Source: Cucumis sativus (lineage: Eukaryota; Streptophyta; Magnoliopsida; Cucurbitales; Cucurbitaceae). From it: 64,000 nt of DNA. Shown piece after piece: positions 3,356-43,289 of this stretch. Below the pieces are notes generated by a model. That model ran no database searches, was not told the origin of the DNA, and was given only the letters and a program-made list of their open reading frames with translations. The stretch's first letter is position 1, and the number at the start of each line of letters is the position of its first letter. A program made the position numbers and the translations under genes. The stretch spans positions 7,626,001 through 7,690,000 of the forward strand of contig NC_026657.2 in the NCBI RefSeq assembly GCF_000004075.3, in the 5' to 3' direction.

Positions 3356-5190
3356 CATAATTAAATTAAAATAAATAACATTCAAATGGCAATTTCCTTT
3401 ATTTACAAAAAAAATACATATATAAGTTGTGAACTTCTAAATTGTAAAATAGGGAAAGAGATGGAGCCTACGAGGGGTAGATTTAAATCTTCGTGGGGAA
3501 ACGGGTAAAGATTAGGAGCTCCATCATTATCAACCCCCTATGACGTGGCATCTTTCCCACGTGTGGACCCCTCTATTTCCATTAATGTTCCCTACCATTC
3601 ATTTTAACACACGTGTGAGAACAAAATATATAACTTTTTTATTAAATCAAATTTGTATCTAATACGATCTTCACTCAATCGACGTTCTTTATTTCTTCGA
3701 CGATAATTGTCATGACAGCTTAAAATATAATTATATAACGTAAGCATGATCATAAAACATAGTTAACAATAGATGTTTTTTAAAAAATTGATAATATTTA
3801 CATTTCATAGAACAAAATTACTGAAAAAGTAAAATTTATTACATTTGATTTTTAAATGAAGTGTAAATATTTTGGAAGTGTTATGTTTTCGATAATTTTT
3901 CTTAAAAATACATACATAAATTAAAATATTCAAAAGTATAATAAAGTAATTACCGTAACTTTATCTTTCAAAATTATGCATTTATATAAATCAATGATAA
4001 AAGTCTTATTAAGATTATTTTATTTAAAAAGATAGTTGAGAGATTATAAAAAATCGGATGGTGGATGTTTAATTTATATACTAAATTAAATTTATAGATA
4101 AATGAGAGACCCTTTGAAATTAATTTTTCATTATAAATATAAACCTTCTAGATTAAATTAACAATAATATATTCTTAGTGAGAAAAAACATGTGGATTTT
4201 ATCTTTTAAAATATCATCAATGTTTTTTTTTTCTTTCTATATTTTCTAAATATTTTAGTTTTGATTGTGCTAATGTACTTTTATATTTATAATTTCTTAT
4301 TATACATTGGTAATGCAGAATCAGAAAAAAGGTATAAAGTTGAAAAGCAATATAAATATAATGTTTTTTTTTTCTTCTTTCTTTTTGTTTACAATATTTA
4401 AAATCACATTTAGTGATAGTGTTAGTGTGGTAGGTAATGGCAGAAAATACGTATATGGAAATTCAATAAAAATGTATTCTTTTTGCAATGAGAATATTAA
4501 TTATGAGAAGATGAATATAAAAATATAATATTATATTACATTGCTTTCCAAAAGAGCAAAAATCCAAATAGAAAAAAAGGAGATAAAATTATAAAAAGAA
4601 AAAAAGAATATTTGACAAAAACATTTAAAAAAAATCTAAGTGTAATAAGTTTTGTTTTTAGTAATTTTACTTTGCATTAAATAATTTGTTTGTTTTTTAT
4701 TAAAACTTCCAATTAATAATGTAAATTATGGATTTAAAGCAAAAATAAAATTATAATTTTAGTCTCTTCAATTTCTATTTAGATTGTTCCATTCTTTAAT
4801 TTTAAAAAGTCTCAATTTTGTTTTCCTCTTATCTTTATTAATATAAATTTGTAGTCCATTAAACATAAAATTATATTTTCTTTTACCTAATATATCTATG
4901 ACAAAATTGACCTAACACTATAACACCTACAAAACCTAGATATAGGATTCAGTCCACGATTCTCGACATTGTATCGATCCTTGCATGTACTTAATATAAT
5001 GAAAGTCAAGTCTTTTCAGCATATTCCGTCCTCACTCACATGCACAATCACTATAAGTGGCAGAATTAAATGGCAACGAAGCATTATTTAATATATATTT
5101 TAATTTAACAATTTAAAATTAATATTAAAATACAAAAATCGAAAATGTAAGGCGTGCCGTTAGTCCCTTAATAAATTTGCCCCAGTTCAC
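3356..5190. other. AT-rich intergenic DNA with two ACGTG-core motifs
   Basis: No gene seen. CCCACGTGTGG near 3557 and ACACACGTGTGAG near 3608 are G-box-like palindromes only about 50 bases apart. No adjacent coding region uses them, so they may be chance or belong to a decayed promoter. A copy of a dispersed motif (TAATAAGTTTTGTTTTTAGT) lies near 4640. Confidence 0.5.
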
Positions 5191-5440
5191 ATGCATCATA
5201 GAAAAATTCTTAGGAGATCAACCAAACATAGAATTCCTCAAAACTAAGCACGCTTAACTTTAAAATTTTTATGATCGGGTCACCGAAAAAGAAGATACAT
5301 CTTGTTAGTATGGTAATAACTTTTAATTATTTAAAGTATTTATTAACATTATTTTCATATCATCATTTAATTATTTTGTCATTCATATGTGATATTGATT
5401 CATTCGTGTCTCTCTCATAAACTCAGGGTGTTATAAACAC
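5160..5440 (-). mobile_element. Degenerate Cassandra-like LTR (TRIM) containing a 5S rRNA-derived segment
   Basis: Read on the minus strand, 5280 down to 5193 aligns with the second half of plant 5S rRNA: the phrase AGTTAAGCGTGCTTAG is followed at the correct distance by TTGATCTCCTAAGAA, matching the 5S GTGACCTCCTGGGAA region, and then by GATGCATGTG. Further upstream on the same strand is TGTTTATAACACCC (5439-5426), which resembles the TGTAACACCC start of Cassandra LTRs. Cassandra elements are known to carry 5S-derived Pol III promoter sequence in their LTRs. The copy is strongly diverged and no partner LTR was found, so it is probably a solo or broken LTR. The outer limits are approximate. 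Confidence 0.55.
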
Positions 5441-8038
5441 ATTGGCATTTTGCTATTTACAATAACAAAATAAAAAAAAACATATAGATGACAAAATTGT
5501 TAGAAATAATTACAAAATATAATATCGTTTAAAAATGAAAATCAAACAAATGACCAAAATAGAATTAAAGTTTAAAATATATAATTTGAAAATAATATTG
5601 GTATTAAAATATGAGCTATGGGGACCCAAATATATGATGAATGAGCACATGAATGAATCAATAAACATAAAGTTATTATTATAAAAATACACCAAAAAAG
5701 ATTATTATAAAATTATGAAGAAAGCAATGAGATGTGGAAAATGCAATGTCATATATTTGTGGGGGCAGGCAGACAATCAATAGGCCTTATGATTATTAAT
5801 ACATTATAACATTACATGAATCCTCAAATTAAAGTCATAACCAAAAAAAAAAAAGAAAAAGTCAATGGAATTTTCTTTTTGGATCAAATTATTGTTAATT
5901 CATGTAATTAAAAAATATACGTGCGTTAGATTCGTTACAACATATCAAAATTTAACGGTATATTAATAATAGAGGTTGCATAATCTATCAGTGAAAGATG
6001 CGATCGGTCCAAATATGAATCAAATTTTGTTTAAAAATAATAGATAAATTTTAGTGTGTGTGATGAGTTTGACTCAAGGTTTAATCAAATACGTAGTTTT
6101 ATCGTAAATCTGTTTAAGTGAACGTAGTTTGATGATTTTATGCGTATTCAACTTTCGAACGTATTTCGTGTCGTACTAGAAACGTTTTACAATTTTTATA
6201 ATGTATAAATATTAGTTATTTAAATAAAATGAAGAATTAAACTAATTTCATTTAAATCAATTGAATCGAGATTGAGTTGCTATTTGTAGTTGTACTAAAA
6301 TAAATATTGATCAATTTTTTTAATTATAATTTAATGGATAAAAGACTAATTACTATATCAAAAGTCGATGATTCAATAAACATAAAACAAAAAGTAACGA
6401 AAACATATGATAAATCAATCGGTCTTTCTCAACACTTATCTCGTTCTTTTATACTTCCTATTGTCATTTGAGTAATTGGACGGTGGTCGTTAATATATTA
6501 AAGTTTAAACGGCATATATAATTTGGTCCCACTGGTTTGACGAAACTTCGTGAGTACTTTCCTCAACCATCGCAATCGTATTCTTATTTTTTAAAACCAA
6601 TACGAGTAGTACTATTTAATTAATTGTCGTCTATTCTTTAGATGTATAGTATAGTTTTGCTAGGCTACTATTTATTAATTACTTTGAGTTAAACTATATA
6701 GTTTACCGAGTCAAGTGATGTTACTTACTACTTATAGCCAAATTAGAAAATACAAGCAAAAGAAGTCAAATGACCTAAAGACCAAATCATGGATCCAAAC
6801 ATGAGATCAATGAGGACAAAGGAGGGAAGTTCATGAACAATAATATTAAAAGCATAGGATAAAATTAATATTAAAGCGAATGAAACATTATGCAATTTGT
6901 TTAATTAAGTTACATGTAGTAGTGGGGGCAGTCTTTCACAATAGACCATTATGGCATCATCATTACTTAAATAGGGTATGAAGAAGTCATTTGGAAATTT
7001 CAATGATTTCACTTTTTAAATATTTTAATTAATATTTATACAAAGTTGTTTTTTATTCTTATTAATTATATACGCTTAAAATGAGTTGAATTTTCAAAAA
7101 TAGTAATTTTTACAGAATATTTAAATTTTTTAAATTCTATCTCATATACTACAATGATAGAAGTTCATCGTGACTGTTATTAGTAAAACTCATAATTTGG
7201 TTATAACTTGTAAATATTTTAATTTATTTTAGTCTATCAACTTTATTTAGTACTCGGTAAACTGAAATTAGTATAATTTAATTTTTAGAAAAATTTGTAA
7301 AAATAGAACATTTTACCGAACATTTATAAACAATAAAGTAATTAAGTTTAATAATTTTTGTTTTTTAGTGATTTTATTTTACAAAAGGTAAATAGTTTGT
7401 CAATATTTTATATTTTTAAAAGACGCATAATTTAGTCGTTATCTTTTTTTATAAAAAAAATTACAATAATTTAGTTAAATTATTAAAAAAACAAATAAAT
7501 TAAGTGTAAAGTTTATTATAAAAGGGTTTAGTCTTTATCGATTTTTAAAAATAATTTTCGGACAGTTTATTGGCCTATACATGTACTTTTTTTTATTAAA
7601 TTTATTAAAAAATGATTACCAAGAATTGAATCGTTAGAAAAGGTAAGTATAGGGACTAAGTTATTTGTTAAATCTTAGTAATTAAATTACATTTTTATCA
7701 AATAATTTTTAAATTATATTACAAATTGATAGTTTTTGTCATGGAAAGATTAAGACTCATACTTATATTGAGCTTAGAATTATATTAATTAAGACCACCA
7801 AACATATAATTTGCAAATATTTCAATATTTCATTCAAATAATATACATATAGTTTCAACTTCCATCCCCTAATCCAATTCCAAACAATTAAACTAAATAT
7901 TTGGTGTAAACAACTTTAATAATTTTTTTAATCACTATCGACCCTCCAATTTAGGAATCGATATTAGTTTAGGTTATGCTAGTTGAGTTGTGTTCATCTT
8001 TGTTACTAGGAATTACAATTTAATTTGCTTAAGAAAAT
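5441..8038. other. AT-rich intergenic DNA, downstream of the ERF gene
   Basis: No gene seen on either strand. A copy of the dispersed GTAAATAGTTTGTCAATA-type motif lies near 7270-7430. No terminal inverted repeats were identified. Confidence 0.5.
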
Positions 8039-35554: not shown

Positions 35555-36872
35555 CTAATAGAGAGACACGAATGTGTTAGCAAGCAAAAAATAGTAGTAA
35601 GAATAACAATTATATGACTTGACCAACAGTTTTCCCCCATCAAATACTTGGTAAGATTTTAAGTAACTTTTCAATCAAGGAGAAATATGACAGAATTAGA
35701 TGGACAACCATAAAAAAGGAAAACACAACAAAAAAATATTGCTAAACTAATTTTTCTTGGAAACAATTTACAAGTCAGCAATCATAAACTAAAATTTATG
35801 TCCTTGAACCATCGCACAGTAGAATGTCATTTGATTAACCTGCTTCTTTATACTTTTTCTTCTTTTGAGGGAAACTTGAAACTAGAAAGCTTTCTTTGAA
35901 CCGAAGAGAGAAATTTGGAGGGATATCAATAAGTTGGGGCCTAACAAACTTGAATGGTTTAATCCTGATTTTAATAACACAAAAGATGATAAGCTTGAGA
36001 TGATATAGAACTTTCTTTCATAAAGTAGCGAATAGAGCACGATTCACGAACAACACTAACATTTGAGAATAGACCGAGCAAGTAAATACCTCTCGGTGTT
36101 AAATTTACACTTTTAAATCATGCCAAAACTCTTGTTCTAGTGAATAGACCCCACCTATAATTTATGGGTTTAAATCTGCATTGTGGGGATTTGCATGTTG
36201 TTGGTCATTCTACAAGGGCATTGAATTGGTGGAAGTTAACTAAAAAAACGCTATAATAACGTTGATTGGACTGGTATGGATACCTGTCTTCAAGTTATAG
36301 GCTTTCATAATAGCTTGCAGAAGCAGATTCACGGTTACGGGCCTGGTTCTAATTTCTCCATTCTCATTATCTGGAGGCATGAGCTTACGCTGAAGATTAT
36401 TGATTCTAATTTCCTTCCATACTTTTCTTTTGGTCTCGTTCTTTGTAAAATCATTGAATTAAAGGTTGGAGGGGGATATGAGAGTGAGAATAGAGTATTT
36501 AAGTTTATGAGCTAACTTATCTAAATCCTCTATCATTAGAATTTAACCGTGAAAAAAAAACTAATGAAGAGCATGTTTTAGGATTTATCAAGAATTATTT
36601 GTAAGATTCCAATCCAAAGCTTTCTATAACCCATCTACAAGCAAATGGCTAACGCGCAAGCTATCCAAGTGTGAAATTAACATCAATAACAGATAATTCC
36701 ATAACCCTAGTCTAGAATACAAAAGCTAATCCAAATAACCCCCACAGCTTCATGCCCTATTTTCAAAATTGCAGAATTACGCAACAAACGAATCCCAATA
36801 TAAACTGCTTTTAAAGATCGAAGAAATATCTTCAACTACGTGAAAGAAAGAGAGAGGAATTGAGAAAAGTAC
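35555..36872 (-). other. 5'-UTR intron of the REB1-like gene
   Basis: The donor CAG|GTACTT (minus strand, GT at 36872-36871) and the acceptor TATTAG just before the ATG bound an intron of about 1.3 kb. It contains no recognisable coding sequence. The tandem-duplication breakpoint (36645) lies inside it. Confidence 0.7.
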
Positions 36873-37015
36873 CTGAGATCGAGGTTCCGGCAAGAGAAGA
36901 AAATGGCGGGGAGAAAGACGTCGTTCGCGCGGGGGAGGAGGTGGTGGTGCGACTGCGAGTAACAAAACCTTCGACACAGCACTTGAAAAGAATCTTTCGT
37001 ATTTAACTGTGCGGT
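36873..37015 (-). other. Non-coding first exon and core promoter region of the REB1-like gene
   Basis: The exon contains no ATG on the minus strand, so it is untranslated. It is GC-rich next to its surroundings and ends with a good splice donor, CAG|GTACTT. The transcription start is probably near 37000. A nearly identical copy lies at 41224-41365. Confidence 0.6.
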
Positions 37016-38183
37016 TTTTTATTTTTATTATTTAACCTTTCCAAAAAGCAAAATATAATCCGATTTTTTTTTACATATATATTTTGTAAATATTTTCATT
37101 TTTAAATATTTTCATAACAATTTTTCTTTTTTATTTTTAACATTTTCTATATACTATTTTTCAATTTGCTTGTTAGGAAAAAAAATGCTTACCTAGTTTT
37201 TTAACAAAGTTTGGTTTTTATAAACTACTTTTTAACAATTTCTCGTCTCGTAAATTTATGATATATAATTTTTTATTTTATTTTAAAATATCATGAATTA
37301 AATAGACATGTTTATGGAGTGAAAACGCAATAAACCAGTAGATCTGAAGTGGTTTATATATATTATGCAATTGTATTGACACATGAAACTCATATTCAAA
37401 TCGGTAATAAAATAACTTAATTTATTTGATGAATGAAGAGTGTTCAATTCGATTATGCCTAAGGATTACATCGCATAGTTATTGTTAACACTAAATTCTA
37501 TGGATTTGAAGTATGTGATATCAAAGACAATCCAATTACACTTGCAATTCTAACTCACTACCATTAATACATCAAATAAAACTTCATTAAAATTACATCA
37601 ATTTTCATTATGATTTGATAAACTTGGCATACTATTTTCATCGATTCTTAGTCTCTATCATAAAAGTTAATAACAAACAAAGTCCATAAACGTATTAAAA
37701 TGTCATTTTGGTAATTATACAAGAAAGTATAGTCAATTTTAATCACTATACATTTTAAATAAAAACATATTAATGTAATCTTCGAAATCTATCAATTTAA
37801 TTCTTATACTTTAATATTTTCAACGATTATCCGTCTCTACAGTGAAAAATATGAATAATATTTAATAAAATTTCTTAGTAGGCAAGAATAATTTAAAGTG
37901 ATTGAGAGTAGGAAGATGCTCATAGAATATAATTTTAAAGTTTTTTGGTTAAGTTGATATTTTGCAAATATTCAAGTTATATTTGAAAATAGTTATATAT
38001 TATATTATATAGAGAAACTGAAATAATTCTATCCACAAACTACCAAGGAAAATTATCAAAAATAGGATAATTTTGGAGGGTATAAAGAGTTTTGGAATGG
38101 ATTTTTAAAAGACGACTTTTAGGACAAATTAACTAGGAAAGTCTATATTGCCTTAAGTTAAAAAAAACCTCTCATCGTATCTG

Positions 38184-38425
38184 TATTCCATTTTTCCCTA
38201 TCTTCACATAACATCTTATTTCCGAACAATGTGTGTGAAATGTTGTATTCCATTTTTCCCTATCTTCACATAACCTCTTATTTCCGAACAATGTGTGTGA
38301 AATGTTGTATTCCATTTTTCCCTATCTTCACATAACCTCTTATTTCCGAACAATGTGTGTGAAATGTTGTATTCCATTTTTCCCTATCTTCACATAACCT
38401 CTTATTTCCAAATACTGTGTGCGAC
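38184..38425. repeat. Minisatellite, 62-bp period, about four copies, inside the Mutator-like element
   Basis: Units begin at 38184, 38246, 38308 and 38370 with TATTCCATTTTTCCCTATCT. The first three are nearly identical and the fourth diverges after about 45 bases. Subterminal tandem repeats are common in Mutator-like elements. Confidence 0.92.
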
Positions 38426-39274
38426 ATGCGTGCGAGATAAAACATAAGGACCTAATAAACTTACTAAACATGCATAAAATCACTCTAAATGGCTTAGGAG
38501 TGAGGAGCGATAGCAATTTGATTGTGAAACTCATTGTAAAAGCTTGAAATGTGCGAGATGCTATGAGATAGGATCGAGAAGCGTGCAAGATAGGTATGAG
38601 ATAGCACAATGACCTAATAAACTTAGTAAACATGCATAGAATTACTCTATGTACCTAAAAAGACTTCCTAAACATGCGTAAAATGGATATATATGTTTGC
38701 AAAATTAGAAAAATAACTAAAACATAAAACAAAAATTCACTTAATTTTTTTCCATACTCCACTGTGTCATTGTTATACATCAAAAGACTCACATGCATCA
38801 TGATCCAACGTTATCCTTGAAAAAAAATTATACGCAACACATGAGTTTTTTTTTTCAAACTAAACTTCAAAATTCAGACGGTCATCAAATACCAAAATCT
38901 CTTGAACCAAAAAATGGATATATATTAACGAAATCTCACTACAAAGCAGGATGAAAAAACTGGCATTCAAGGATCTAAATTGTTCATTCATCTGGCAAGA
39001 TGCCCATTCAATCATACATTATTTGATTGTAAAATGGCAACAATACTCACCTATTGACTACAGAACTACTACAAAAGGGTAAAAGCAAACAAGTTTCAGT
39101 ATAAGATTTAATGAAAATGGTCATCATCTCTCAAGTCTATTTCCCTCCTATTGTCTAACAAGTGCTTGTACTTGAAATGCCAAAATTTTTCCACTTGAAT
39201 TGCATCTTAAAAACCATATAAGGGGAAAAAGTACCATCTTATCTTGATAATCAATTCCCCACAAATTAACATTA

Positions 39275-39429
39275 TTATTGAACTTCGTGGTAACCCCACT
39301 GAGGAAAGTTGTTGCCTCTCAACTGACTATAGTCGTTTCATTCCTGGCTGCTTCCTCGACCAAAACTATGAGAACCAAACCGCCCCCTAGGAGCATTTGA
39401 CTGGTAACTATCTCTCCCTCCTCCCCTTC
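39275..39429 (-). pseudogene. Captured last-exon fragment of an RGG-box RNA-binding (G3BP/NTF2-RRM-like) protein
   Basis: On the minus strand an acceptor-like TGAACAG is followed by sequence encoding RGGGRDSYQSNAPRGRFG, SHSFGRGSSQE, a TGA stop, then NDYSQLRGNNFPQ and GYHEVQ before tandem TAA stops. This looks like the glycine/arginine-rich C-terminus of a plant G3BP-like protein (NTF2 plus RRM). The TGA probably replaces a TGG tryptophan. Sequence to the left (38940-39270) may be its 3' UTR. Capture of an intron-exon boundary suggests that genomic DNA, not cDNA, was acquired. The family assignment rests on the tail only. Confidence 0.6.
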
Positions 39430-39599
39430 CTGTTCATGGCACCACCAATAAATGCATCAAAAACCATCCATGTGAGCCAATCCAAACAAATAATCAATAG
39501 CAAGGGCCTCCGAGACCTAATAAATACACACCATTAGGCAGAAATCTACCAAAATATTTAAATTCTTGCTCAATTTTAGCTACAGTAACAACGGGCTGC

Positions 39600-40085
39600 A
39601 AGTTTCTAAAATAGAGAGATTTTGAAAAATCAACAAACCATCTTCACCATCAGCTTCCACGATGTTAGTCGGCAACTGGGTCTTATGGAGCTAAACAGTA
39701 CCTTCTTTAAAATTCGGCAGAGAAAGTCGTGGGCAGTGACGGTCCAGTGAGGAAGGTTGAGCCAAAGAGAGACATAGCAAGCTAGGCCAAAACCTCTAAC
39801 GCCGCAAAATATTGCATGGTAGACGCCGAGTTGTTTAGCGACATTGGTAGTCCAACCAAGAAAGATATCGGAGATGATATAGAGTGGGGGACGGCCATGG
39901 CAGCGAGCTGTGATAGCTTGAATGTCTTCTTTGAAAGAGGATTTGAATTCGAGAGAGGAAGAAGCTTGAAAAAGGCGAAGGATGTGGTGATAAGGAACGA
40001 CAGCAAGTTTCCAAAGGCCGGTGGGAGGCTATGAGAGGAGCTTGAGAAAGGGATTTCAAGAAAACGAATCGAAGAATGGAAAATT
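39600..40085 (-). pseudogene. Captured, frameshifted fragment of a UGT92-like UDP-glycosyltransferase
   Basis: Minus-strand frames in succession encode IRFLEIPFSSSSHSLPP (near 40065), then SSFKEDIQAITARCHGRP and IISDIFLGWTTNVAKQLGVY followed by HAIFCG and GLACYVSLWLNLPHW (39947-39744), then LHKTQLPTNIVEADGEDG (39690-39637). These are consecutive parts of the N-terminal acceptor domain of plant UGTs, closest in style to UGT92A1. At least two frame changes and a stop separate them, and the donor-binding PSPG box is absent, so it cannot encode an enzyme. Confidence 0.75.
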
Positions 40086-40268
40086 TTGTGAAAATGGGGG
40101 GAAATGGAATACACTGAGGGAGAGATGAGAGAAAAATGAAATATTTTTTTGGGAAGTAGGAAAACGGAGGGAGAAGGAGAAAAGAAAGAATTCCATAAAT
40201 AGAATTTTAGAGTTTTTTTTTTTAACTTAGGGGTAATATAGGCTTTTTCTAGTTAATTGTCCTAACAA

Positions 40269-40504
40269 TGAGAAACGAACGTAGAAGGTTCTGATTGAAT
40301 ATGGATAGTCCTTCGGACTAAGAAATCCATATTAACCTTTGGACTGGATCCTTTTTAAATTGCGACTGAGGAGGGAGCACAATATATAAAGAGAGTAATA
40401 TTCTCTGCGCCATTAGCTTCACTTCGCTAGGCTCTCTTTCTTACTTTTGAGTTCCGTAGAAGGCGCAAAGAATATTAAGATGCTATTAGGTGCAAAGAAC
40501 TAAT
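40269..40504. repeat. About 235-bp insertion inside the right inverted repeat of the Mutator-like element
   Basis: The left inverted repeat is nearly continuous across this point (only a few bases at 38113-38118), while the right one is split by this segment. It contains a strong hairpin, AATATGGATAGTCC, then TTC, then GGACTAAGAAATCCATATT, at about 40300-40337. Both edges show TAA, which could be a 3-bp target duplication, but no terminal inverted repeat was found. Confidence 0.45.
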
Positions 40505-40639
40505 CTTTTTGAAAATTCATTCCAAAACTCTTTATACCCTTCCAAATTATCCTATTTTTGATAATATCCCAAACTACAAATGGCTTATGCAAGAAGAAGA
40601 AAAAGAACAAATTTGGGAAAATCCAAGTGAAGAAGAAGA

Positions 40640-40999
40640 ATGGGAGAAGAAACTGAAGGCCATAGCAATGGCAACGACCTTCATCAAGTTTTGGTGTTTG
40701 GTTCCCCATGGGTATTACCCGCTCTCCAATCTCAATTCTCAAACCGATTCCATTTCCTCCTACCATCACTTTCCGATCTCCCTCTCCTCCAATTCCTTTC
40801 TTCTTATGCCCAATCCACACAAGCCTTGCTCATCTCCAGCAGCTGCTCTCTGGTCACCTCCCCCGTCCTCGATTTCCTTCCGGCGCTCAAGCTCCTTGTC
40901 ACTACTAGCACCGGTGTTGACCACATCGACTTGCCGGAATTACGTCGCCGTCAGATCGCTATTGCCTACGTTCCGGACTTGTACTCTGAAGATGGCTAA
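40640..40999 (+). pseudogene. Truncated HPR3-like reductase copy (5' half only)
   Basis: It encodes 119 residues starting MGEETEGHSNGN, colinear with residues 1-118 of the intact gene at 41849. It is cut after LYSED, where GGC and TAA come from REB1-like intron DNA. It has only the N-terminal part of the catalytic domain: no NAD-binding GLGKIG and no Arg/Glu/His triad, so it cannot be an active reductase. By eye about 15 substitutions separate roughly 350 bp of the two copies, several changing residues (LISSSCSL against LIPGGCFL). Its promoter is interrupted by the Mutator-like element. The start codon and frame are still open. Confidence 0.9.
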
Positions 41000-42203
41000 C
41001 GCGCAAGCTATCCAAGTGTGAAATTAACATCAATAACAGATAATTCCATAACCCTAGTCTAGAATACAAAAGCTAATCCAAATAACCCCCACAGCTTCAT
41101 GCCCTATTTTCAAAATTGCAGAATTACGCAACAAACGAAATCCCAATATAAACTGCTTTTAAAGATCGAAGAAATATCTTTCAACTACGTGAAAGAAAGA
41201 GAGAGGAATTGAGAAAAGTACCTGAGATCGAGGTTCCGGCGAGAGAAGAAAACGGCGGGGAGAAAGACGTCGTTCGCGCGAGGGAGGCGGTGGTGGTGCG
41301 ACTGCGAGTGACAAAACCTTCGACACAGCACTTGAAAAGAATCTTTCGTATTTAACTGTGCGGTTTTTTATTTTTATTATTTAATATTTTCAAAAAGCAA
41401 AATATAATCAAATTAATTAATCACTATTCTATTTAAATGAAAACATATTAATTTAACCTCTAAAATGTATCGATTTAATTCTTATATTTTAATATTTTCA
41501 CTGAATCTTAATCTCTATCGTGCAAAAATATGATTTAATTATTTAAGTGATTGAGAGTTCATAAAATCTAAATACTAATAAAAAAATGTCTTTAAAATCT
41601 TTTAATTTTACTTTTAAATTCTTTTCTTTTTAGTTCGTGCGATATTATGTAAATTTTATTATTCTATTACGTTATATTAGAAAATAGTTATATATTATAT
41701 TATGAAATAATTGTGTCCACAAAACTACAATCTTTATAGGGAGTCTTATCCAAGCAAAAAAAGAACAAATTTGGGAAAATCCATTTCCATTTCCATTTGC
41801 ATTTTATGTACTTTGGTAGAAGCGGCCTTACCCAAGTGAAGAAGAAGAATGGGAGAAGAAACTGAAGGCGATAGCAATAGCAACGACCTTCATCAAGTTT
41901 TGGTTTTAGGTTCTCCGTGGGTATTACCCGCTCTCCAATCTCAATTCTCAAACCGATTCCATTTCCTCCTACCATCTCTTTCCGATCTCCCTCTCCTCCA
42001 ATTCCTTTCTTCTTATGCCCAATCCACACAAGCCTTGCTCATCCCCGGCGGCTGCTTTCTGGTCACCTCCCCCGTCCTCGATTGCCTTCCGGCGCTCAAG
42101 CTCCTTGTCACTACTAGCGCCGGTGTTGACCACCTCGACTTGCCGGAATTACGTCGCCGTCAGATTGCTATTGCCTACGTTCCGGACTTGTACTCTGAAG
42201 ATG
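40992..42203. repeat. Copy B of the tandem segmental duplication
   Basis: It starts inside REB1-like intron sequence (GCTAACGCGCAAGCTATCC, equal to 36648 onward), continues through the duplicated first exon and promoter, and passes directly into the intact HPR3 gene. At the novel joint near 40992-40994 the triplet ATG is shared by both parents (36645-36647 and 42201-42203), a microhomology. Confidence 0.9.
41224..41365 (-). other. Orphan copy of the REB1-like first exon and promoter
   Basis: It is nearly identical to 36873-37015 and keeps the splice donor CAG|GTACTT at 41221-41222. It has no REB1-like coding exons behind it; the next DNA on the minus strand is the antisense of the truncated HPR3 copy. 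If still active it would initiate non-coding antisense transcription. Confidence 0.7.
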
Positions 42204-43289
42204 TCGCTGATCTTGCGGTTGGGTTGTTGATTGATGTTCTCATGAAGGTTTCGGCGAGAGATCGGTGCTTTAGGCTACGGCTTCCGCCTACTACCAACCC
42301 GGAATTTCCGCCTCTCGGATTAAAGGTGCCATGGATTTTCCTATTTTAACTCAAAACTACTTTTTTCGAGGGAATTTGTCATTATTACCAAATATATATA
42401 TAAAGGGAATAGTAAAAAATGATAAATTTAACAGAAAAAAAATTAAGAGTAACCCTGATAAAAATGCTATATTTTAATTTATTTTACTATAGTTAAAATT
42501 GTTCTATATAAAAAAAATTAAGAAAACTATATACTGACCAATTTCTTTTGTTGTTTTCAGATATTACAAAAAAAAATTAAAAAGAAAAAAAAATACTTAT
42601 GCTAACTTGGGAGAAAAAACAAATATACTTTAAAATGAAAATTTGTCAAAAAAATAATCAAATATTTAAATGTAAAAAATTTGGTTTTGTCGATTGTAAA
42701 TAGTTTGTAAAAAACCCTTTTGATTAATGAATTTCATAATTGATTTTTTTTTTATCACTTTTTGCAGTTAAATGGGAAAAGAATTGGGATAGTTGGATTG
42801 GGGAAAATAGGGTCTAAAGTTGCCAAAAGGCTGGAGGGATTTGAGTGCAAAATCTCATATAACTCAAGGACCAAAAAGCCATTAGTTCCATACTCATACT
42901 ACTCCAATGTACATGAACTTGCAAGCAACTGTGATGGCCTCGTACTTTGTTGTGGGTTAACGAAAGAAACCCAACATATGATCAATAGGGAGGTGATGGC
43001 TGCATTAGGAAAAGATGGAGTGATAATCAACGTTGGTAGAGGGGCGATAATCGACGAGAAGGCTATGGTTGAATGTTTGATCAAGGGAGAGATTGGGGGA
43101 GTTGGGTTAGATGTGTTTGAGAATGAACCTGAAATTCCTGAAGAGCTCTTTAATTTCGATAATGTTGTATTATCACCACATGTTGCTGTTATGACACATG
43201 AAACTTTGGAGGGATTGTCTAGGTTGGTGGTGGACAACTTGGAGGCATTGTTCTCAAACAAGCCTTTGGTGTCTCCATTTCCTAATTAG
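41849..43289 (+). CDS. HPR3: Glyoxylate/hydroxypyruvate reductase HPR3-like (D-2-hydroxyacid dehydrogenase)
   Basis: Two exons, 41849-42325 and 42768-43289, joined phase 0, give 332 residues (Arabidopsis HPR3 is of similar size). The enzyme reduces hydroxypyruvate, glyoxylate or related hydroxyphenylpyruvate with NAD(P)H. The Rossmann motif is GLGKIG at 169-174. The catalytic triad is Arg250 (NVGRGA), Glu279 (ENEPE) and His297 (SPHVAV). The DVADLAVGLLIDVL block near residue 120 is typical of the family. No peroxisomal SKL-type tail is present, so cytosol or plastid is likely. The SYNSR run after the Rossmann beta strand suggests NADPH preference, which is inferred. The promoter side is copy B of the segmental duplication. 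The gene is convergent with ADP-glucose phosphorylase. Confidence 0.94.

What the first reader, a model, noticed from the sequence alone, without database searches (positions are those of the whole stretch)
38047..40570. Pack-MULE with fragments of two unrelated host genes
A 2.5-kb element with Mutator-type inverted repeats and a 10-bp target duplication carries a UGT92-like fragment and an RGG-protein last exon, both in the same orientation. An empty site for comparison exists 3.2 kb away in copy B, which confirms the insertion. Two-gene chimeric capture is uncommon outside grasses.
Basis: partly seen in the sequence, partly recalled or inferred. Interest (0 to 1): 0.8.

Follow-up and report, generated by a model that had tools for sequence, protein, structure and literature searches.

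The report
Cucumber jumping gene carrying gene scraps
This is a non-self-sufficient jumping DNA element, very probably from cucumber, whose ancestor picked up pieces of three ordinary plant genes and was copied to about ten other places; it is a clear example of a known kind of element rather than a new kind.

Summary
The 2524-bp element (38047-40570) has Mutator-type inverted repeats, a 10-bp target duplication (9/10), and an empty site in the neighbouring gene copy. Its cargo is three host-gene fragments, not two, all on the minus strand: an internal UDP-glycosyltransferase (UGT) piece, three collinear pieces of an NTF2-RRM-RGG (G3BP-like) gene, and an RPL32 3' end. Likely parents of all three lie elsewhere in the genome, without the repeats. 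A kept intron end favours DNA-level capture. Fifteen loci, about 11 independent sites, share the cargo or part of it; the window copy branches first. A 233-bp piece of mitochondrial DNA sits in its right repeat. A related element with a mudrA transposase ORF and Ulp1 exists; whether it mobilises this one is unproven. New member of a known kind; nothing shows that the chimera is expressed.

The parts
38037..38046 (.). left target-site duplication AAACTACCAA
   Evidence: 9 of 10 identical to the right copy; single copy at the empty site
38047..38167 (+). left terminal inverted repeat (aligned part)
   Evidence: terminus GGAAAATTATC resembles L014 GGAAAATTACC
38182..38428 (+). 62-bp tandem repeat array inside the left end
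   Evidence: families D1/D2, spacing 62
38416..38649 (+). subterminal repeat sequence, also found at many other loci
   Evidence: many matches to query 1-234
38869..38993 (-). captured RPL32 3' end (last codons and 3' flank), 96% to C1:19866152-19866277
   Evidence: a 197-bp version in L014 and L023
39076..39273 (-). captured 3' flank of the NTF2-RRM-RGG (G3BP-like) gene, 91% to L025:4808-5005
39273..39505 (-). captured last coding exon plus about 70 bp upstream read as intron end of the G3BP-like gene, 87% to L025:5191-5423
   Evidence: the parental frame is closed by a stop just upstream of 5351
39511..39624 (-). captured inner part of an RRM-coding exon of the G3BP-like gene, 89% to L025:6364-6475
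39623..40076 (-). captured internal part of a UDP-glycosyltransferase gene, 87% to C4:14003564-14004019 (507-aa open frame)
40084..40269 (-). right terminal inverted repeat, inner part
   Evidence: query 2038-2219 matches the left ends of siblings in inverted orientation
40270..40502 (-). 233-bp insert of mitochondrial DNA inside the right repeat
   Evidence: absent from the four siblings shown at that site; only other listed match is contig C85, 91%; C85 bears COX1
40503..40570 (-). right terminal inverted repeat, outer part
40571..40580 (.). right target-site duplication AAACTACAAA
41722..41730 (+). empty site in gene copy B (single target copy AAACTACAA)

Best explanation
The element is a non-autonomous Mutator-like transposon (Pack-MULE). 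An ancestor captured, most likely at the DNA level, one UGT fragment, three collinear pieces of a G3BP-like gene and an RPL32 3' end. Transposase supplied in trans then moved it; this copy landed upstream of a truncated duplicate of a 2-hydroxyacid dehydrogenase (HPR-like) gene. Shown: inverted repeats, target duplication, empty site, likely parents in the same genome, junctions shared by siblings, no transposase domain in its inner ORFs. Inferred: mobilisation in trans by a mudrA/Ulp1 MULE like the one at C5:12775500-12784500, and a single capture history before the copies spread. A later lineage seems to have exchanged cargo: the Ulp1-bearing family shares the right end and the end of the UGT piece. 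This copy carries a mitochondrial insert in its right repeat and is probably no longer mobile (inference). Its cargo is probably non-functional (inference).
For: Inverted repeats and target duplication; empty site. Of 15 loci examined, UGT is found in 14, G3BP in 14 and RPL32 in 14, with parental breakpoints within a few bases of each other in most. Flanking DNA matched only among L011, L012, L015, L016 and L018, giving 11 apparently independent sites. Sibling target duplications, read by eye and allowing the right boundary to shift by one base: L010 9/9, L009 8/9, L017 8/9, L014 in an A/T run. Likely parents: 507-aa UGT frame, G3BP-like gene in several ORFs (NTF2 and RRM), RPL32; none shows an end-repeat match in the stretch read. 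Kept intron end at about L025:5352-5423. The 4 ORFs of >=90 aa wholly inside the element have no Pfam match. Tree rooted on joined parental pieces: window copy first (98).
Against: The target duplication has a mismatch and the two ends align over only about 120 bp in this copy. No element with mudrA and near-identical repeats was found: the candidate's one located end is 70-76% similar over 84-147 bp and its other end was not found. L013 lacks the outermost 24 bp or so of its left end; for L011, L012, L015, L016, L018, L019, L020, L021 and L023 at least one end was not recognised as a matching partner in the stretches read. Exon limits of the G3BP-like parent were read from ORFs, not modelled. 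No orthologous locus could be examined.
Confidence: 0.95

Rival explanations
1. The chimera is an expressed or domesticated gene: transcription starts in the right repeat, reads UGT, then G3BP exons, and ends in the RPL32 3' region.
For: All three fragments point the same way; the RPL32 piece could supply a 3' end; a 132-aa UGT frame is open in this copy.
Against: The UGT piece lacks its start and its C-terminal half, and a shift splits its frame in this copy. Of 13 sibling loci with a protein-level UGT match, 12 have at least one stop in a matched piece; the exception, C6:13703932, matches only residues 29-100 of 100. Third-position excess against the parent (31 against 18 and 17) is what the parent's own constraint would give. 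Same orientation of three pieces has a chance of 1 in 4. No RNA data were examined.
Confidence: 0.05
2. RNA-level capture: the fragments came from processed transcripts.
For: Intron and exon sequence between the two G3BP coding pieces is missing; the captured part of the UGT parent has no intron.
Against: About 70 bp read as intron end is kept, and the missing stretch includes two exons, so the gap is not a splice.
Confidence: 0.04
3. Direction of cargo change reversed: the Ulp1-bearing family is older and the Pack-MULE arose from it, or the two ends were exchanged by recombination.
For: Ulp1 ends are more numerous among the scored right ends (24 of 40). The right-end tree has no outgroup and its inner branches are weak (23-33).
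Against: In that tree the four Ulp1 ends used form a group (98) inside the clade of L017 and the main Pack-MULE copies (97) when rooted on the window copy, as the parent-rooted core tree suggests. The UGT piece of Ulp1 elements is 64-83 bp in the three compared with the parent, against 468 bp in full copies.
Confidence: 0.2

Closest known systems
Pack-MULEs of rice, tomato, Arabidopsis and maize (PMC3310237, passages; Jiang et al. 2004 seen only in reference lists)
   Same: Non-autonomous, long inverted repeats, 9-11 bp target duplication, host-gene fragments, several copies. That one Pack-MULE can hold fragments of several genes is stated in PMC9168764 (passages).
   Different: Three genes in one element, a capture shared by 15 loci, a mitochondrial insert in one repeat.
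PM-ZIBP Pack-MULE family of tomato (PMC3310237, passages)
   Same: A captured fragment amplified to 14 copies in a dicot, parent in the same genome.
   Different: One gene fragment; 13 of 14 copies have tandem repeats at the ends.
CsMULE in cucumber CsMYB60 (PMC6305189, passages)
   Same: Mutator-like, cucumber, 9-bp target duplication.
   Different: 6994 bp with mudrA; no captured host gene in the passages seen; sequence not compared here.
CUMULE / Kaonashi-type MULEs with mudrA and Ulp1 (names recalled, from no call)
   Same: The C5 relative has mudrA-type and Ulp1 ORFs.
   Different: The window element has neither; the Ulp1 sibling family carries a Ulp1 fragment, and the one read in full (C6:6982950-6986616) shows no mudrA ORF.

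Membership tests
Mutator-like element (MULE) | long terminal inverted repeats | tested here: met
   103 of 119 aligned in this copy; about 288 bp at 83% in sibling L010
Mutator-like element (MULE) | target-site duplication of 8-11 bp | tested here: met
   10 bp with 9 identical; 9 of 9 in L010; empty site
Mutator-like element (MULE) | relation to an element with a mudrA-type transposase | tested here: inconclusive
   L055: 810-aa ORF with PF10551 and PF03108; one end 70-76% similar over 84-147 bp; other end not found
Pack-MULE | no transposase of its own | tested here: met
   4 inner ORFs of >=90 aa without Pfam match; no PF10551 match listed at this place (150 of 251 candidates scored, list cut)
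Pack-MULE | carries fragments of host genes that also exist elsewhere in the genome | tested here: met
   three likely parents
Pack-MULE | same cargo and termini at several sites | tested here: met
   11 apparently independent sites with cargo; both ends and a target duplication in 5 copies including the window (L014's is an A/T run)
Pack-MULE | able to transpose now | not testable with these tools
   needs resequenced lines or an assay

The most novel reading that the evidence does not exclude
The right end plus the UGT junction behaves as a stable module to which different cargo is attached: first host-gene pieces (G3BP, RPL32), later a Ulp1 piece taken from a mudrA/Ulp1 MULE (99.2% identical over 637 bp in the copy compared), after which the new form came to sit at 24 or more places. 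That would be step-by-step cargo replacement, directly readable within one MULE lineage.
Probability: 0.6. Interest if true: 0.5.

Novelty: new member of a known kind. Interest (0 to 1): 0.35.

Why it matters
One genome holds a readable series of states (likely parents, an early copy, amplified copies, copies with other cargo), which bears on the open question of how MULEs gain and lose sequence. The Ulp1 family, whose captured piece is almost identical to its likely source, looks like the most recent and so the most informative capture. The window element itself is an ordinary, old member.

Tried and rejected
UGT parent by DNA search: of the 40 matches scored, 1 is the window, 13 are siblings, 25 are right ends and 1 is C4:14003564-14004019; I first took that one for an element copy and recognised it as the likely parent only from the protein search.

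Short right-end matches (C48:162977 and others) as MITEs: rejected; the one read in full is a 3.67-kb Ulp1 element with a target duplication of 9 of 9 read by eye.

L021 (UGT only, breaking at the UGT/G3BP junction) as a stage before G3BP capture: not favoured, because it nests inside the clade (463 sites). Why it breaks just there stays open.

A further captured gene in the left part of siblings (L009:1750-2090): the matches include other element ends and repeats; I recognised no gene among them.

Rfam: 0 matches over 38000-40700. The copies L011, L012, L015, L016, L018 as separate transpositions: rejected, they share flanks.

mudrA matches near C5:8021128, C5:8774495 and C48:162977: they lie 11-13 kb outside the ends, so I do not count them as part of those elements.

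Literature: five searches with Pack-MULE and two with Mutator-like showed no paper on a multi-gene Pack-MULE in cucumber among the rows listed; the library holds open-licence papers only. PMC8903248: 0 occurrences of cucumber or Cucumis.

Full report
Where it lies. The window is G000:C3:7626001-7690000 of a 226.6-Mb genome in 88 contigs. Contig C85 is 1,555,935 bp and bears COX1. PMC9240471 (passages) gives the large cucumber mitochondrial chromosome as 1556 kb. I therefore take the genome to be cucumber; this is an inference.

The element. Inverted repeats of 64 nt, 91% complementary, bound 38047-40570. With the private insert left out, the ends align over 119 columns with 103 identical; score 148, the best of 200 shuffles 30. 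The flanks are AAACTACCAA and AAACTACAAA; 20 of 61,420 positions in the window give as good a pair at that spacing. The joined flanks align to 41399-42199, with a single AAACTACAA at 41722-41730, so the insertion is real. It lies upstream of a first-exon fragment of a 2-hydroxyacid dehydrogenase gene (40631-40999); the neighbouring copy goes on to a second ORF with the NAD-binding domain. No second copy of the element is in the rest of the window.

The cargo, on the minus strand from the right end inward. (1) UGT: element 1577-2030, 87% to C4:14003564-14004019, part of a 507-aa frame with a UDPGT domain. (2) A G3BP-like gene in L025: an RRM-exon piece (6364-6475, 89%), the last coding exon with about 70 bp upstream (5191-5423, 87%), and 3' flank (4808-5005, 91%). 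NTF2 and RRM domains of that gene score in Pfam. A stop closes the last exon's frame just upstream of 5351, so I read 5352-5423 as intron end; exon limits come from ORFs and were not modelled. Two exons between the first two pieces are absent, as are 185 bp between the last two. (3) An RPL32 3' end, 96% over 126 bp to L026:2153-2278, from the last codons on; that locus is spread over several ORFs and I did not test whether it is intact. A second locus, C1:914407-914529, matches at 87%. The kept intron end points to capture of DNA.

Siblings. The genome search scored 40 of 189 candidates, so counts are lower bounds. I examined 15 loci including the window: UGT, G3BP and RPL32 are each found in 14 of 15 (L023 lacks UGT; L021 lacks the other two). 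Right flanks match among L011, L012, L015, L016 and L018 only, which leaves 11 apparently independent sites; L019, L020, L021, L023 and the five-copy group were tested on one side only. Core identity is 94-99% among L009-L013 and L015-L020, 89-93% from these to L014 and L023, 88-92% to L021, and 86-90% from the window copy to the rest. A tree rooted on joined parental pieces separates the window copy from all others (98). The window copy is also closest to the parental pieces (87.8%; others 84.7-86.8%).

Siblings with other cargo. The 265-bp right end of sibling L010 gave 40 scored matches of 212 candidates. Of the 40, 11 are Pack-MULE copies, 24 have a Peptidase_C48 (Ulp1) match 0.64-0.78 kb inside the end, and 5 have neither. 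The script counted 25 Ulp1; I dropped C1:11427, whose match lies outside the end. All 24 also match the UGT-end stretch, window 40007-40084. In the three compared with the UGT parent itself, 64-83 bp match. The frame is 160 aa in 15 of the 24; the rest differ in length, one with a stop. Whether the 24 are separate insertions was checked for three only: L027, L052 and L053 share sequence from the end inward and not outward. One, C6:6982950-6986616, is 3.67 kb with ends 74% alike over 113 bp and a target duplication of 9 of 9 (by eye). Its Ulp1 piece is 99.2% identical over 637 bp to L055, which has a 199-aa Ulp1 ORF and an 810-aa ORF with MULE and MuDR transposase domains. In the right-end tree the four Ulp1 ends used form one group (98) inside the clade of L017 and the main Pack-MULE copies (97); the inner branching is weak (23-33) and the tree was rooted on the window copy, following. 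I read this as cargo replacement, with the reverse direction or end exchange as a rival.

The mitochondrial insert. Element 2224-2456 is absent from the four siblings shown at that site; its only other listed match is C85 at 91%. It splits the right repeat of this copy.

Function. The four inner ORFs have no Pfam match, Rfam gives nothing, the UGT frame is shifted in this copy, and 12 of 13 sibling loci have a stop in a matched UGT piece. No RNA data could be examined. I consider the cargo non-functional until transcripts are shown.

Known work. PMC3310237 (passages) describes Pack-MULEs as non-autonomous elements with gene fragments and 9-11 bp target duplications, and lists 46 in Arabidopsis, 220 in tomato, 2853 in rice, 276 in maize. 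PMC9168764 (passages) says that a Pack-MULE can hold fragments of several genes. PMC6305189 (passages) describes CsMULE in cucumber. The element fits these descriptions: a new member of a known kind.

Noticed in passing
window 40270-40502: 233 bp of mitochondrial DNA (91% to contig C85) inserted in the right repeat of this copy.
   Followed up: yes
window 36645-37065 and 40992-41414; 40631-40999 and 41840-43289: Tandem partial duplication of a 2-hydroxyacid dehydrogenase (HPR-like) gene: a first-exon fragment beside a copy with both domains.
   Followed up: partly
window 38182-38428: 62-bp tandem repeat, four copies, in the left end.
   Followed up: no
C6:6982950-6986616 and 23 further right ends: A 3.67-kb MULE family with a Ulp1 protease fragment (160-aa frame in 15 of 24) and the end of the UGT piece beside its right repeat.
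   Followed up: partly
L029-L033 (C7:8446 kb, C3:22.1-22.3 Mb, C73): A larger repeat unit, 96-98% identical, that carries the Pack-MULE together with further ends of the same kind.
   Followed up: partly
L021:1500-1520 (C3:31831308): A copy that breaks at the UGT/G3BP junction and abuts sequence that looked to me like another DNA transposon (recalled motif, no search).
   Followed up: partly
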